DNA of 64,000 nucleotides, from the NCBI RefSeq assembly GCF_001989615.1, contig NZ_CP019067.1, forward strand, positions 2,294,001 to 2,358,000, given 5' to 3'. Made by a program: the position numbers and the translations under genes. This DNA comes from Halorientalis sp. IM1011 (GTDB taxonomy: Archaea > Halobacteriota > Halobacteria > Halobacteriales > Haloarculaceae). The notes under the pieces are model-generated. The model made no database searches, was not told where the DNA came from, and saw only the letters and a list, made by a program, of their open reading frames with translations. The stretch's first letter is position 1; each line of letters begins with the position of its first letter. Positions 6,306 to 13,161 of the stretch are shown here, piece after piece.

Positions 6306-6368
6306 ATATTGGACAAATCTACTGGGGATATATTGACACTTGAAATGAGTAATGGGATTTGTGGTCAG

Positions 6369-7136
6369 TTATTCCGTCGCCGTCTCAGCACTCTCCTCGG
6401 ACCCAGCGTCGGCGCTTGCCTCACCCGTTTCCTGCAACCGACGCTCGGCCTCTTCTTGATCCTCGGGATAGCCAACGTCGATCCGCCAGCCGTCCATCCG
6501 GATGGCGTCGATGGTTCGGCCCGACTGGATTAGCAGGTCGATGGCTTCGCTGATCTCGTACTCACCCCGGTCCGAGGGCTGGACAAGGTGGCAGGCGTGG
6601 AAGATGGCCGGCGTGAAGGTGTAGAATCCGGTCATCACGAGATTCGACGGTGGCTCGTCGGGCTTCTCGACGACCTCGACGATCTCGCCGTAGTCGTTGG
6701 TGTCACAGACGCCATATCGGCTGGCATCTTCCCACGGCACTTCCTCGACGAGGAACGCCGCATCGGCGCGACTCTCCCGCTGGCGGTTGACCACGTCCGC
6801 GAGGTTCGCCTGGAAGACGTTGTCGCCCAGCATCAGCATGAAGTCGTCGTCGATATGCTCTTCTACGGTCAGCAGGGCGTGGGCCAGTCCCTGCTGTTCG
6901 CGCTGGTGGGTGTAGGTGATCGGGACGCCGTCGAACTCGTCGCCGTAGTGGTCGATGATGACCTCCTTCATGTAGCCGACGACGACGACCAGTTCGTCGG
7001 CTCCGAGATCGACCAGTTGCTCGAAACAGTGGGTCAGGATCGGTTTGTCATCGACCTCGACCATTCCCTTGGGCTTGTCCTCGGTGAGGGGCCGCAGCCG
7101 CGTTCCCTCGCCGGCGGCCAACACGACGGCTTTCAT
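6369..7136 (-). CDS. glucose-1-phosphate uridylyl/thymidylyltransferase-type sugar nucleotidyltransferase (AglF-like)
   Basis: 255 residues. The N-terminus is the classic nucleotidyltransferase signature LAAGEGTRLRPLTEDKPKGM (residues 6-25). It is followed by GYMKEVI, LMLGDNVF (the metal-binding Asp region), VVEKPDEP and a YEISEAIDLLI segment, all typical of the RmlA/GalU/AglF group. It activates a sugar-1-phosphate with UTP or dTTP. Length matches AglF of the Haloferax N-glycosylation pathway, and nearby glycan genes and the UDP-glucose dehydrogenase at 17355 fit that role. The short Glu/Ser-rich tail has no clear function. Nucleotide and sugar specificity cannot be fixed from sequence. Confidence 0.88.
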   Translation of the reverse strand: MKAVVLAAGEGTRLRPLTEDKPKGMVEVDDKPILTHCFEQLVDLGADELVVVVGYMKEVIIDHYGDEFDGVPITYTHQREQQGLAHALLTVEEHIDDDFMLMLGDNVFQANLADVVNRQRESRADAAFLVEEVPWEDASRYGVCDTNDYGEIVEVVEKPDEPPSNLVMTGFYTFTPAIFHACHLVQPSDRGEYEISEAIDLLIQSGRTIDAIRMDGWRIDVGYPEDQEEAERRLQETGEASADAGSEESAETATE

Positions 7137-7283
7137 GTCCGCTTACTCGACGGGTCAACTGCAAAACTCTTGTCCTCGCCTTCGCCTCGATACGGTCTCG
7201 TCTCAGGAAGTTCGTTGAGATGGGTTTGCCCGAGATATGGTATCGGTAGAAAGATAATTTTCCATAGTAAATGCGGGACAAGA

Positions 7284-7307
7284 CTAATACTATTAGATGC
7301 TATAGCA
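7284..7307. promoter_or_regulatory. operator-like palindromes at the promoter of the HTH/NTase pair
   Basis: CTAATA-C-TATTAG (7284-7296) is a perfect 6-1-6 palindrome. TGCTATAGCA (7298-7307) is a perfect 10-bp palindrome right after it. Both end within 34 bp of the ATG at 7318 and would overlap the transcription start of a short-leader haloarchaeal promoter. The central AATACTATT is identical to that at 6285-6293. Binding by the encoded HTH protein is an inference. Confidence 0.5.
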
Positions 7308-7317
7308 ATAACTAGCG

Positions 7318-7992
7318 ATGATGGAGTACGTCGACGGGATTGCGGCAAAAATCATGCTAGCGATCCGTCCCGGTGATTCGATTCGGCGGATCGCCCAGAA
7401 GATCGACGGCTCCTACTCGTGGGTCTACGACTGGGTCGAACGGTTGGAAGAAGCGGGCTTCATCCGGCGCGACGATGGCCTCTACATCGAGAGTTACGAT
7501 GTCAGAGACAGCTACTACGATATCGTCGCAGCAATATCCAGATCAGCTCCGCTCTCGATCGACGAGGGATACGTCATTCCGCATTTCGCAGGTATGCCGT
7601 TCGCGTACACGAAAATCGACGGAGTCTACGTTTGGACGCACGGGGGCTATCAGATCGCTCGCGGTCACGACGACTATCCGATCTTTATTCAGGTCGCTGA
7701 CCGGGATATCGAACGGTGGGCTGCCTTCTTCGACGAGTTCGGGATTCCAAACACGATCGAGGAGCGCCTGGATGCAACCGAGTACGAGGGAACAGTCGCG
7801 TACGTGTTATTCCCGACGAGCGAGGATATCACTCGCGAGTGGGTCGACGGCAACCCAGTCGTTCCGTTAGACGAAACGATCGACCACATGCTGGACTACC
7901 GTGTGAACTACGAACCGGCGTTGGAGATGATCGCTGACGAGTACGACCGTGACATCGACGCGTCCCACGCAGACCCGCACCTGAAAGCATGA
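7318..7992 (+). CDS. winged-HTH protein, AbiEi-like partner of the downstream nucleotidyltransferase
   Basis: 224 residues (a second Met follows the first). An N-terminal winged HTH is visible: RPGDSIRRIAQKI, a recognition helix around SYSWVYDWVERLEEAGFI and a wing RRDDGLYIES (residues about 18-60). The remaining 160 residues form an acidic domain that I do not recognise by motif. The stop overlaps the next start by 4 bp (ATGA), so the two genes are translationally coupled. HTH gene first and nucleotidyltransferase second is the arrangement of AbiEi/AbiEii type IV toxin-antitoxin and phage-defence pairs. The palindromes just upstream suggest self-regulation. Assignment to AbiEi is by analogy and context, not strong sequence identity. 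Confidence 0.6.
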   Translation: MMEYVDGIAAKIMLAIRPGDSIRRIAQKIDGSYSWVYDWVERLEEAGFIRRDDGLYIESYDVRDSYYDIVAAISRSAPLSIDEGYVIPHFAGMPFAYTKIDGVYVWTHGGYQIARGHDDYPIFIQVADRDIERWAAFFDEFGIPNTIEERLDATEYEGTVAYVLFPTSEDITREWVDGNPVVPLDETIDHMLDYRVNYEPALEMIADEYDRDIDASHADPHLKA

Positions 7993-8684
7993 GTCTTGGC
8001 GAACGCGAAGACGAGTTGCTAGATACGCTAGAGACGGTGATCGACGCCGATTTTCCGTACGTGCTTGTCGGTGGCTGGGCAATTGCGGCGTTCAACCAGC
8101 GATTTACGACAGATGTTGACGTCGTGATTCCGGGACAGGCTCTCGACGACTACACTGCGCTCCTCACTGGTCGTGGCTACGAGAAAACCGCTGATGTCGA
8201 GCGAAACGAATTGTACGAGGGTCGTACTGTCAGGTTCGAGAAAGACGTCGGGAACCCGGTTCAGTTCGATGTGATGGTCGATGCATTGGGGTGTCGACAA
8301 ACAGAAGCCGAGTGGTCGTATCGCTATCTGTCCGAACACTCCGTCACCGAAGAATTAGGCACATCCCGTCCAATTTCGGCTCGGATTCCGGAACCGGAGT
8401 TGCTGTTTGCGGTAAAACTCCACAGTGGCCGAAAAGCCGATACCCGCGACCTTGTGGTACTCGGGCGCGACGCCGATCTAGAACGAATCGCGATGCATCT
8501 CAACCGTGGGGACTCAGAGAAACTTGCACGGCGTATCGGAGTCGTCATGGATCGACTAACGTCACCCGGTTTTGCGGATTCGTTTAAAGGCGTCTTCGAA
8601 CAGCAGACAGTACCCGAGCAGGATATCGACGCTGTCAAGGAATTTCTTCTCAACCAGCGTGATCGTCTCGATACCGAACAGTGA
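7989..8684 (+). CDS. AbiEii-like nucleotidyltransferase
   Basis: 231 residues. The nucleotidyltransferase-fold signature is clear: YVLVGGWAIAAFNQRFTTDVDVVI, with the Gly-Gly at 28-29 and the metal-binding acidic pair D42/D44. A later IPEPELLFAVKLHSGRKADTRDLVVL segment matches the region where such proteins carry a conserved Lys and Asp. The R-x-T-x-D-V-D pattern is that of the AbiEii/MNT-like group rather than of DNA polymerase beta itself. It overlaps the HTH gene by 4 bp. In AbiE systems this subunit is the toxin and modifies tRNA or another RNA; that activity is family knowledge and is not shown here. Confidence 0.7.
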   Translation: MSLGEREDELLDTLETVIDADFPYVLVGGWAIAAFNQRFTTDVDVVIPGQALDDYTALLTGRGYEKTADVERNELYEGRTVRFEKDVGNPVQFDVMVDALGCRQTEAEWSYRYLSEHSVTEELGTSRPISARIPEPELLFAVKLHSGRKADTRDLVVLGRDADLERIAMHLNRGDSEKLARRIGVVMDRLTSPGFADSFKGVFEQQTVPEQDIDAVKEFLLNQRDRLDTEQ

Positions 8685-8704
8685 TGTAAAAGAACGATTG
8701 GCTG

Positions 8705-9136
8705 TCAGGTACGCAACCCCTCCTCCGCGATACGCCCTATCACGTCTCGATGTTGGCGGTGGATGTCATCTCGTTCGTTCTCAAAAGCCTCCGTGATTTC
8801 CCTCTTGAACTCCCCGACCGATCGCTCGTCACCGCAGAGGAAGTCTCCGCTCACGGCGTCGTGAGCCACTGCGATTGGAAGTTCCTCGATATCGGAAACA
8901 TCGACATATGGGGCGTCCTCGCGCTGGAGCATCCCGGAAAGATGGCAACGCTTCTGGAACCGTTCGCTCGATGAAAGCTTGTCGGTGAATTTGACGGCGA
9001 GGTCGAGGTCGGACGCGGCATGGTTTTCATCCGTGACGCGGGAACCGAAGGCCACTGCAAACACGATGTCGTCATCTCCACGGAGTGACTCTGCGAGGTC
9101 GGTCAGCACCGTCGATTGATCGTCACTCCCTGTCAT
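8705..9136 (-). CDS. MntA-like minimal nucleotidyltransferase without an adjacent HEPN partner
   Basis: 143 residues from ATG 9136 (an in-frame ATG at 9163 is possible). The MNT motif AFGSRVTDENHAASDLDLAV gives G31-S32 and D43/D45, the GSx10DxD signature. Antitoxins of the HEPN-MNT system (MntA) modify the HEPN toxin by adding AMP. No HEPN gene (Rx4-6H motif) is seen on either side: the gene converges on the AbiEii-like gene and is divergent from the MFS transporter. It may be an orphan or serve a partner elsewhere. The end is complete, with a charged C-terminal helix. Confidence 0.7.
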   Translation of the reverse strand: MTGSDDQSTVLTDLAESLRGDDDIVFAVAFGSRVTDENHAASDLDLAVKFTDKLSSSERFQKRCHLSGMLQREDAPYVDVSDIEELPIAVAHDAVSGDFLCGDERSVGEFKREITEAFENERDDIHRQHRDVIGRIAEEGLRT

Positions 9137-9237
9137 GTGGAGAACAACGCCGTATCCCACCAAAAGAATTGTCCTCCGCGGGGCCTGAGGGCCCGTCCTT
9201 CGAAACCGACTTTCCCGACCTCTCCCAACCTCTGAAA

Positions 9238-10410
9238 GTGAGTCGTCGGTACGCGTCGGTCGTCCTCGCGCTGTGTACGCTGGCCTTCTTCGCCACGATG
9301 GTCGCCCGGCTGGTGATCAGCCCCGTCGTCCCGAACCTCACGCTCGCGTTCGGGGTCAGCAACGGCACCATCGGGCTGGCGCTGTCGGGCATGTGGGTCG
9401 CCTACGCGACCACACAGTTCCCGAGCGGCGTCCTCGGCGACCGCCTCGGCGAACGAACGGTCATCCTCGCAGCCGTCGGCGGCACCGCGGTGACGAGCCT
9501 CCTCCTGACGACCGCACCGAACTTCCCGCTCTTTTTCGCCGGGACTGTCCTCCTGGGAGCGGTCGCCGGCCTCCACTACAGCGTCGCCACCACGCTGCTT
9601 GCCCGCTACTTCGACGACATCGGGTGGGCCATCGGTGTCCACGTCGCCGGGGGACCGCTCGCCGGTCTCCTTGCCCCCATCGCGGCGGCTGTGGTCGCCA
9701 CACAGTACGGCTGGCGGCCGGCCATCGGGATCGGCGCGGCCGTCGCTGTCCCCGTGTTCGTCGCCTTCTGGCTCTCCGTGGAGTCGACCGAGCCGCGCCG
9801 GCCGGAGCAACCCCTCAGAGAGCGCTTCGAGGTCGCCGCAGTGCGCGAGCTGCTTGCCCGGCCCCAGATCCGATACACGACCGCACTCTCCGTCCTTGGA
9901 GCCTTCTCCTGGCAGGCGACGGCCTCGTTCCTGCCGACCTTCTTCACGGCCCACCACGGCTTCTCGACGACGGTGGCGGGCGCGCTGTTCTCGGCGTACT
10001 TCGTGATTCACGGCCTGACCCAGCCGATGCTCGGGTCGCTCTCGGATCGGCTCTCCCGGGACGGCGTCGTCGCTGGCGCGCTCGCGTCGGCTGCGATCGG
10101 GTACGCGCTGCTGGTCGTGACCGAACAGTTCGTCGTCGTGATCGCCGGGATCGTGCTCGTCGGCGTCGGGATGAGTTGGGGCGCGCCGCTGCAGTCCCGG
10201 TTCATGGACATCCTCTCTGACGCCGAACGTGGGGCCGGGTTCGGGCTCGTCCGGACCGTCTACATGACCATCGGTGCATCGGGGAGCGTCGTCGTCGGTG
10301 TCCTCTCGGATACTATCAGCTGGACCGTCGCGTTCGGGCTGCTGGCCGTGTTGGCGAGCGTGGCCGTCATCGCTATCGTCGTGAACCGAGTGCTGGGGCT
10401 CGGTCTCTGA
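9238..10410 (+). CDS. MFS transporter
   Basis: 390 residues from GTG 9238, read as MSRRYASVVLALC. Longer in-frame starts would overlap the divergent MNT gene, and the codons before 9238 encode a hydrophilic stretch unlike MFS proteins. Twelve hydrophobic segments are visible. The GVLGDRLGER loop after TM2 is the MFS signature (G-x-L-[GA]-D-R-x-G-x-[RK]), with a weaker equivalent SLSDRLSRDG in the second half. It would be a proton- or ion-coupled transporter in the cytoplasmic membrane; the substrate is unknown. Whether it belongs with the nucleotidyltransferase genes is unclear. Confidence 0.85.
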   Translation: MSRRYASVVLALCTLAFFATMVARLVISPVVPNLTLAFGVSNGTIGLALSGMWVAYATTQFPSGVLGDRLGERTVILAAVGGTAVTSLLLTTAPNFPLFFAGTVLLGAVAGLHYSVATTLLARYFDDIGWAIGVHVAGGPLAGLLAPIAAAVVATQYGWRPAIGIGAAVAVPVFVAFWLSVESTEPRRPEQPLRERFEVAAVRELLARPQIRYTTALSVLGAFSWQATASFLPTFFTAHHGFSTTVAGALFSAYFVIHGLTQPMLGSLSDRLSRDGVVAGALASAAIGYALLVVTEQFVVVIAGIVLVGVGMSWGAPLQSRFMDILSDAERGAGFGLVRTVYMTIGASGSVVVGVLSDTISWTVAFGLLAVLASVAVIAIVVNRVLGLGL

Positions 10411-10522
10411 GAGCCGCGTGGTTCCCCTTCTCGATGCAGGACTTTGGACCGTCGTTGGAAATGTCGATACCGTCTTTCGGAGACGCGAAAAGTCTATACC
10501 GATACATCGTCTTTGTAATGGT

Positions 10523-10621
10523 ATGCCGGTGAACTGGGAAGCGCAGCGGGAGATGGACCGCGACGTTGAGGAAAACGCGGACCTGTATGAAGTGCTGGCC
10601 GACGAACCCGACGACGAATAA
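10523..10621 (+). CDS. very small acidic protein (32 residues)
   Basis: MPVNWEAQREMDRDVEENA... is a 32-residue, highly acidic protein. A BRE/TATA-like stretch (CGAAAAG-TCTATACC, about 10486-10500) lies roughly 25 bp upstream of the likely start point, which supports a real short-leader gene. Longer in-frame starts exist but read through that promoter. Its stop abuts the stop of the convergent broken Doc gene with no spacer. I do not recognise a family. An antitoxin-like or regulatory role is conceivable but unsupported. Confidence 0.45.
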   Translation: MPVNWEAQREMDRDVEENADLYEVLADEPDDE

Positions 10622-11125
10622 CTACCTGTCGCCCGGTTCGACAACCCGTAGTTCGTCATCGAAAAACCGCCACCAAACATCGTAGAGGTCGTCCTTTCGA
10701 TAGAGCGTATCCAGCCGCACTGTTTCGATCTCTCTCCGGACAGTGTGTGACTCTTGCCGGGCTTCTCCCAGCCGATCCAGCGACCATTTGCTATACTCGA
10801 TACCGTTTTCGTCCAACAGCCGCCGGAGTAGTGCAACTGCAGTCCGGTGGTTTGCGTCAGGAAAGAAATGTTTACCGACGACCGCGTGCATCCAGCCCGC
10901 ACATTGTTCTTCGAGCGACCACTACATCGGGAACTGGGAGAGGACACGTCGGAGATCACCATTCCGGGTGGCCCAGATCTGATGCCGGAGACTCTCGAAC
11001 GACTCGCCTCCGGTCTGTTCGTATTCAGTGTCTCCTTTGAGGAATTTGGTATTCCGGAGCTTGAAGTCCTCAGCATTGAGGGAAGATAGATCCGTGATCC
11101 GGAGATGGTCGTCCGCTTGTGACAC
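10622..11125 (-). pseudogene. Doc/Fic-family toxin gene interrupted by an in-frame TAG
   Basis: One frame encodes a Fic/Doc protein. The C-terminal half has the Fic core HFFPDANHRTA (H-x-F-x-D-A-N-x-R) and a WWRFFDD tail. The N-terminal half has TGGESFESLRHQIWATRNGDLRRVLSQFPM. A single TAG at 10924-10922 separates them, and the same frame resumes at once with WSLEEQCAGW, so no frameshift is involved. Doc proteins transfer phosphate or AMP to targets such as EF-Tu. The likely start is GTG 11125; the frame is open to ATG 11221. No Phd-type antitoxin gene is visible upstream. An internal ATG (10891) could give only the C-terminal piece. Sequencing error cannot be excluded. Confidence 0.75.
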
Positions 11126-11241
11126 GGCAGGGTCAACGTCTGGGTGCGGTTTATACCTCTGGGATGGTCTGAAACCAAATTGGATGGGGTACGGAAATTC
11201 TTGTTTCCCTTGACGAAGCATTCACTCTCTTCGTCATTACG

Positions 11242-11323
<82 letters not shown>

Positions 11324-11332
11324 AGGACGGGG

Positions 11333-11376
<44 letters not shown>

Positions 11377-11425
11377 CGGGTTCCAACGCAATCATTAAGC
11401 CGTCCGACCGTGATAGTATGCATAG

Positions 11426-13129
<1,704 letters not shown>

Positions 13130-13161
13130 GTCAGCTGAAAACTGAAAGTCAGATCAGAAGA

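What the first reader, a model, noticed from the sequence alone, without database searches (positions are those of the whole stretch)
7318..8684. Candidate haloarchaeal AbiE-like HTH/nucleotidyltransferase system
A winged-HTH protein with a long unrecognised C-terminal domain overlaps by 4 bp a nucleotidyltransferase with intact GG and DVD motifs. Gene order, coupling and operator-like palindromes fit a type IV toxin-antitoxin or phage defence pair, but the HTH protein has little resemblance to bacterial AbiEi beyond the HTH. It may be a distinct archaeal branch.
Basis: inference. Interest (0 to 1): 0.6.

Follow-up and report, generated by a model that had tools for sequence, protein, structure and literature searches.

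The report
Haloarchaeal HTH–nucleotidyltransferase toxin–antitoxin candidate
A two-gene operon that travels on plasmids of salt-loving archaea looks like a toxin-antitoxin module: a self-regulating DNA-binding protein made together with a nucleotide-adding enzyme of the kind that poisons translation in bacteria, but with an antitoxin whose main domain matches no described family.

Summary
Two intact genes, HTH (7318-7992) and nucleotidyltransferase (NTase, 7989-8684), overlap by ATGA. Both are under purifying selection (dN/dS about 0.1).

They form a fixed module. Of 79 NTase loci in public genomes, 78 have the HTH gene directly upstream; the exception is a truncated NTase. Identical operons occur in different genera, and many sit on plasmids near orc1/cdc6 or ParA.

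The predicted NTase fold (pLDDT 87) is closest to the MenT1 and MenT3 toxins, with catalytic residues invariant in at least 77 of 78 sequences. Position 40 is always Ser/Thr, matching the MenT1 residue that antitoxin-induced phosphorylation blocks. The HTH protein very probably autorepresses: a 20-bp palindrome (GTTAYC-N8-GRTAAC; window 7239-7258) precedes most copies. NTases are repeatedly lost or broken while the HTH stays intact; no intact NTase without its HTH was found.

The AbiE label is only partly right. The HTH protein's C-terminal domain (about residues 83-224) matches no AbiEi, Pfam or solved structure. Canonical AbiE exists separately in haloarchaea. A MenT/AbiEii-type toxin with an unclassified antitoxin is most likely, probably stabilising plasmids. 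Toxicity, tRNA targeting and neutralisation are inferred, not shown.

The parts
7318..7992 (+). HTH gene (224 aa): candidate autorepressor and antitoxin
   Evidence: ORF; HTH_23 E 1.2e-5; homologues in 52 of 116 genomes of the family; dN/dS about 0.1
7339..7488 (+). Winged-HTH DNA-binding domain (about residues 8-57)
   Evidence: Pfam matches to residues 10-58; model pLDDT 75-90 here, structural matches to MarR/IclR-type wHTH
7564..7989 (+). C-terminal domain of unknown family (about residues 83-224; core motif FAYTxIDxVYVWTxGGYQ), candidate NTase-neutralising domain
   Evidence: No Pfam, PDB or AbiEi match; it is the only part of the HTH protein that the family profile matches in distant genome G460, next to its NTase
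7989..8684 (+). Nucleotidyltransferase gene (231 aa): candidate MenT/AbiEii-type toxin
   Evidence: ORF; model pLDDT 87, pTM 0.86; best PDB fold MenT1 8an4/8an5, E 5e-8; profile match to MenT1, E 5.8e-7
7989..7992 (+). ATGA stop/start overlap (translational coupling)
   Evidence: Sequence; kept in 55 of 78 pairs
8070..8075 (+). NTase motif I, G28-G29
   Evidence: G28 in 77 of 78 and G29 in 78 of 78 NTases
8100..8120 (+). NTase motif II, R38-F-T40-T-D42-V-D44; T40 aligns with the MenT1 phosphoacceptor T39
   Evidence: R38, D42, D44 in 78 of 78; position 40 Ser or Thr in 78 of 78; alignment to MenT1; PMC11375011
8415..8450 (+). NTase motifs III/IV, K143, R148, D151-x2-D154
   Evidence: K143, R148, D151, R153, D154 in 78 of 78
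7239..7258 (.). Operator-like inverted repeat GGTATC-N8-GATAAT, position -79 to -60 from the HTH start
   Evidence: 11 of 12 match to family operator GTTAYC-N8-GRTAAC
7299..7306 (.). 8-bp palindrome GCTATAGC just upstream of the start codon; in most relatives this place holds tandem half-sites GATACC/GATAAC
   Evidence: Sequence and upstream comparison; tentative second site

Best explanation
A bicistronic toxin-antitoxin module. (1) The HTH protein binds 20-bp palindromes upstream of its own gene and represses the operon. (2) Its C-terminal domain binds and neutralises the NTase. (3) The freed NTase uses its Pol-beta-type active site to transfer nucleotides to an essential RNA, most likely the 3' end of tRNAs as MenT1 and MenT3 do, and halts translation. 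(4) Because the genes are translationally coupled and the module often sits by plasmid replication and partition genes, losing the plasmid or the antitoxin frees the toxin. The main role is probably stabilising plasmids and islands, with abortive infection possible. Step 1 is strongly supported by sequence. The fold and intact active site behind step 3 are supported by prediction. Step 2, the substrate in step 3, toxicity and step 4 are inferred.
For: Obligate pairing: 55 of 59 NTase hits in 116 genomes have the HTH directly upstream, and the 4 others are fragments. In public genomes it is 78 of 79, the exception being truncated. In the phylum sample 22 of 22 intact NTases are paired. Decay is one-sided: intact HTH genes with broken or missing NTases are frequent (24 full-length HTH hits without an NTase; broken remnants; L118), while no intact NTase lacks its HTH. 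Fold and active site: MenT1/MenT3 are the top toxin matches, and catalytic residues plus Ser/Thr40 are conserved in 78 NTases. Operator. The half-site changes from GATAAC to GGTAAC together with the recognition helix (YSWVYDW to YETVRQA). Mobility: 59 and 81 plasmid records carry NTase and HTH homologues, with 100% identical operons in Haloarcula, Halorubrum and Halobacterium; HTH and NTase distances correlate at r = 0.96. orc1/cdc6 lies within 7 kb in 31 of 78 loci and ParA in 14.
Against: No toxicity or neutralisation data exist. The HTH model is poor beyond the wHTH (mean pLDDT 56), so the antitoxin fold is unknown. The NTase score stays below the Pfam cut-off for AbiEii (17.8 against 22.5) and the best single-sequence Pfam match is the aminoglycoside-2''-adenylyltransferase family. 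The phosphoacceptor argument rests on aligning a Ser/Thr in a short motif. Some HTH paralogues without NTase have their own conserved neighbours, so part of the orphan count may be independent regulators. Loci are related, so counts are not independent. The window copy is chromosomal, where plasmid addiction does not apply directly.
Confidence: 0.72

Rival explanations
1. A regulated small-molecule-modifying NTase (like ANT(2'') or Lnu) with its local repressor, giving resistance to some haloarchaeal antimicrobial.
For: Pfam Aminoglyc_resit is the best single-sequence match (20.3 bits, cut-off 21); ANT(2'') and LnuA structures appear in the fold list.
Against: MenT1 and MenT3 rank above them by fold, and MenT1 by profile. 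A resistance gene would be expected to occur sometimes without its regulator, yet no intact NTase without its HTH was found.
Confidence: 0.1
2. The roles are reversed, as in HEPN/MNT (type VII): the NTase is the antitoxin or modifier and the HTH protein is its target or the toxic partner.
For: MNT-type NTases can be antitoxins (PMC7641770, abstract seen); an orphan MntA homologue lies next door.
Against: The HTH protein is repeatedly kept alone, intact, after NTase loss, which a toxic HTH partner would not allow; the NTase is of the MenT type, not the MNT type.
Confidence: 0.07
3. A plasmid replication or partition accessory: the HTH protein regulates plasmid functions and the NTase modifies a replication factor or RNA, without addiction.
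For: Neighbouring orc1/cdc6 and ParA genes.
Against: Chromosomal copies with conserved synteny in three Halorientalis genomes and several copies per genome; neighbours vary while the pair stays fixed.
Confidence: 0.08

Closest known systems
MenAT1 / MenT1 (Rv0078A-Rv0078B), PDB 8an4/8an5
   Same: NTase: best profile (E 5.8e-7) and fold match (E 5e-8); shared R-F-[ST]-x-D-h-D motif, K and DxxD.
   Different: About 20% identity in the structural alignment; partner MenA1 is a small protein without HTH (PMC11375011), here a 224-aa HTH plus unknown domain.
AbiE (AbiEi/AbiEii, type IV TA), including canonical haloarchaeal AbiE
   Same: Gene order HTH antitoxin then NTase, inverted-repeat operators, NTase motifs I-II, mobile distribution.
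   Different: NTase below the PF08843 cut-off, spacing GG-x12-DhD instead of x15, motifs III/IV altered; HTH C-terminal domain not AbiEi. Canonical AbiE occurs separately in the class.
MenAT3 (Rv1044-Rv1045; MenT3/TglT)
   Same: NTase fold match (6j7q, 7c46); two-domain wHTH antitoxin; conserved active-site Ser/Thr (S78 in MenT3, PMC11375011).
   Different: MenA3 is AbiEi-like; the haloarchaeal C-terminal domain is not recognisably so; the toxin is smaller (231 aa against about 290).
HEPN/MNT (HepT/MntA, type VII TA)
   Same: Pol-beta NTase in a two-gene module.
   Different: There the NTase is the antitoxin and the partner is an RNase; here no HEPN domain was found and the decay pattern is the opposite.

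Membership tests
AbiEii / DUF1814 (PF08843) | Motif I hG[G/S] and motif II DhD with an Arg four residues before | tested here: met
   V27-G28-G29; R38, D42, D44 in 78 of 78 NTases; motif definitions from PMC3985639
AbiEii / DUF1814 (PF08843) | Motif III KLxAaxxR and motif IV +DxxD | tested here: inconclusive
   K143 and R148 invariant but 5 apart, not 7; D151xxD154 invariant but without a directly preceding Lys/Arg
AbiEii / DUF1814 (PF08843) | Score above Pfam gathering threshold | tested here: not met
   17.8 bits against 22.5; only 10 of 30 family members reach E 0.1
AbiEii/MenT structural superfamily | NTase fold closest to MenT/AbiEii toxins | tested here: met
   Foldseek ranks MenT1 1-4 and MenT3/TglT 6-7; model pLDDT 87
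AbiEi antitoxin | wHTH N-terminal domain with inverted-repeat operators | tested here: met
   HTH_23; operators
AbiEi antitoxin | AbiEi-type C-terminal antitoxicity domain (PF09407 and relatives) | tested here: not met
   No such Pfam match in 30 members; hhalign to canonical haloarchaeal AbiEi no better than decoys. Profiles are shallow and the fold is not resolved, so distant homology is not excluded
Toxin-antitoxin system (functional) | NTase toxic alone, neutralised by partner | not testable with these tools
   Indirect only: one-sided decay and obligate pairing
MenT toxin | Adds nucleotides to tRNA 3' ends; active-site Ser/Thr phosphorylated through the antitoxin | not testable with these tools
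   Residues in place; activity unknown
Phage-defence system | Enrichment in defence islands or protection against virus | tested here: inconclusive
   No PADLOC match for the window NTase; 6 of 30 relatives match AbiEii models weakly; neighbours are mostly plasmid genes; no formal enrichment test made

The most novel reading that the evidence does not exclude
The C-terminal domain of the HTH protein is a new antitoxin family, unrelated to MenA1 and AbiEi, that controls a MenT-like tRNA-modifying toxin and has been joined to different DNA-binding domains. It would define an archaeal NTase toxin-antitoxin type that is a major stabiliser of haloarchaeal megaplasmids.
Probability: 0.45. Interest if true: 0.68.

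Novelty: new variant of a known kind. Interest (0 to 1): 0.52.

Why it matters
To my knowledge few archaeal toxin-antitoxin systems have been characterised by experiment, and how haloarchaea keep their large plasmids is poorly understood. This module is common (52 of 116 genomes in the family carry the HTH gene, 46 the NTase gene), mobile between genera, and has a predicted operator, active site and toxin and antitoxin roles that can be tested at once in Haloferax. It would also show that MenT-like toxins recruited yet another unrelated antitoxin, testing whether antitoxin-induced auto-phosphorylation of the active site is a general way to control these enzymes.

Tried and rejected
Virus origin: no homologues in viral contigs or in the phage collection. 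AbiEi homology of the C-terminal domain: by eye a motif VDGxPVIPLxETI resembles the AbiEi_1 stretch IEGxxVxVxDLEKTLVD, but profile comparison did not support it, so it is not claimed. Structure of the HTH C-terminal domain: AlphaFold model too poor (pLDDT 56, pTM 0.40) and its fold search matched mainly wHTH regions. Solved-structure search with the HTH profiles: only wHTH hits of note. Orphan HTH genes paired with another toxin: downstream ORFs differ, with two recurrent small proteins, not pursued. A script comparing operators at orphan HTH genes printed wrong positions because of a scoring slip; only the raw sequences in that output were used. Literature searches in the held library found no paper describing this pair; most subscription journals are not held.

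Full report
What is there. The window lies in the main chromosome of a Halorientalis-like haloarchaeon (G000:C1:2294001-2358000; the best named relatives of the NTase are H. persicus and H. regularis at 97%). Two ORFs at 7318-7992 and 7989-8684 overlap by ATGA. The first encodes a winged HTH (HTH_23) followed by about 140 residues without any database match. The second has a Pol-beta nucleotidyltransferase signature, weakly matching Aminoglyc_resit, AbiEii and DUF6036, all below the curated cut-offs. Both genes evolve under purifying selection (dN/dS about 0.1). The block 6366-10412 is syntenic in H. persicus and H. regularis at 90%. Another congener (G035) has the neighbouring transporter gene but no pair.

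It is an obligate pair. In 116 genomes of the same family the HTH gene is found in 52 and the NTase in 46. Of 59 NTase hits examined, 55 have the HTH gene immediately upstream on the same strand, and the other 4 are fragments of 285-540 bases. Among 79 NTase loci from the GTDB contigs, 78 have the HTH upstream and the one exception is truncated; 55 of 78 keep the exact 4-bp overlap. In a phylum-wide sample 22 of 22 intact NTases are paired (read). HTH and NTase sequence distances correlate at r = 0.96. Outside haloarchaea the pair was seen in two Thermoplasmatota assemblies (L149, L158) and in one other genome of the phylum (G460).

Decay is one-sided. 35 of 90 HTH hits lack an NTase hit downstream, and 24 of these are full length. 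Among close relatives, intact HTH genes sit in front of NTases with several stops (G057), internal deletions (G068), short remnants (G106, G064) or in-frame stops (G009). L118 has lost the NTase N-terminus with its catalytic motifs. The phylum sample adds remnants at G116, G130, G131, G140 and G147. No intact NTase without its HTH was found. This is what is expected if the NTase is harmful without the HTH protein. Two cautions apply: the searches were seeded with these proteins, and some distant HTH paralogues have recurrent neighbours of their own and may be independent regulators.

Autoregulation. Upstream regions carry a palindrome GTTAYC-N8-GRTAAC. 54 of 65 distinct regions match at 10 or more of 12 positions, against about 2 in shuffled sequence and 2 of 153 control stretches (the pattern was derived from the same set). 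In several lineages it is a perfect 20-bp palindrome (GTTATCTCTATAGAGATAAC, L133). In the more distant lineage the half-site becomes GTTACC/GGTAAC, just downstream of an A/T-rich element, and the recognition helix of the HTH changes in parallel (YSWVYDW to YETVRQA). The window copy is at 7239-7258.

The NTase. AlphaFold with 30 relatives gives pLDDT 87 and pTM 0.86. Foldseek against the PDB ranks MenT1 first (E 5e-8), then a Helicobacter NTase and MenT3/TglT, with ANT(2'') and LnuA behind. A profile search of PDB sequences agrees (MenT1, E 5.8e-7). Residues R38, D42, D44, K143, R148, D151, R153 and D154 are invariant in 78 NTases, G28 is kept in 77, and position 40 is always Ser or Thr. Position 40 aligns with T39 of MenT1, the residue auto-phosphorylated when the antitoxin binds (PMC11375011). 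Against the AbiEii motifs of PMC3985639, motifs I and II are met while III and IV are only partly met.

The HTH protein. Its wHTH is well predicted, its C-terminal domain is not (pLDDT about 30-60). The domain matches no Pfam family convincingly in 30 members, no PDB sequence of note, and no canonical haloarchaeal AbiEi beyond the HTH. In a test against 37 unrelated families AbiEi did not rank above the background. In G460 the C-terminal half is the part that the family profile recognises (E 1.2e-30, residues 76-221) while the N-terminal HTH is different and weakly resembles AbiEi_4 (E 0.057). The domain shared with the NTase through evolution is therefore the C-terminal one, not the HTH, which suggests it is the neutralising part.

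Mobility and context. 59 plasmid records carry NTase homologues and 81 carry HTH homologues. Operons identical over their whole coding length occur in Haloarcula, Halorubrum and Halobacterium, so recent transfer is near certain. An Orc1/Cdc6 gene lies within 7 kb in 31 of 78 loci, ParA in 14 and an ArdC-like gene in 25 (annotated examples L066, L068 and L247). These loci are partly clonal, so the counts are not independent. No virus or phage record searched carries the pair.

Interpretation. The best account is a toxin-antitoxin module with a MenT/AbiEii-type NTase toxin and a self-regulating antitoxin of a kind not recognised by any library used. It works like AbiE and MenAT. It is not filed as AbiE, because the AbiEi C-terminal domain was tested and not found and the NTase fails the AbiEii threshold. 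Plasmid stabilisation is the likelier selected effect; abortive infection cannot be excluded. Toxicity, the RNA target and neutralisation remain inferences.

Canonical AbiE. In 194 genomes of the class, AbiEi_1 was found in 39 and AbiEii in 38. So haloarchaea hold both systems, and the finding is not simply the local form of AbiE.

Noticed in passing
window 8705-9163 (-): An MntA-type antitoxin gene (NCBIfam NF047752, 60.8 bits over a cut-off of 60) convergent with the NTase and without an evident HEPN partner beside it; conserved in two other Halorientalis genomes.
   Followed up: partly
window 10622-10891 (-): Short ORF starting inside a Fic/Doc-like motif (HFFPDANHRTA; Pfam Fic E 0.06), apparently the truncated end of a Doc-type toxin gene.
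   Followed up: no
window 10413-13161: Stretch absent from the syntenic region of H. regularis (L089), holding the Fic/Doc remnant and an IS200/IS605-like TnpA-TnpB pair (11426-13077).
   Followed up: partly
G000:C1:2265892-2266302 and G000:C2:183886-184302: The window's own genome has two AbiEi_1 (PF09407) genes but no AbiEii match.
   Followed up: no
L073, L074, L076, L078, L079: A subfamily of orphan HTH homologues has its own palindrome (TTGCACAGAATTGTGTAA) before the start and a conserved small protein of about 80 aa downstream in place of an NTase.
   Followed up: partly
L083, L085, L081, L088: Another orphan HTH subfamily is followed by a conserved protein of about 126 aa holding KATITIKEINDNRYYYWQWREG; a related protein is also a frequent neighbour upstream of the intact pair.
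   Followed up: no
L242 (G460:C91): A divergent pair whose HTH protein has a different, weakly AbiEi_4-like N-terminal domain joined to the same C-terminal domain.
   Followed up: yes
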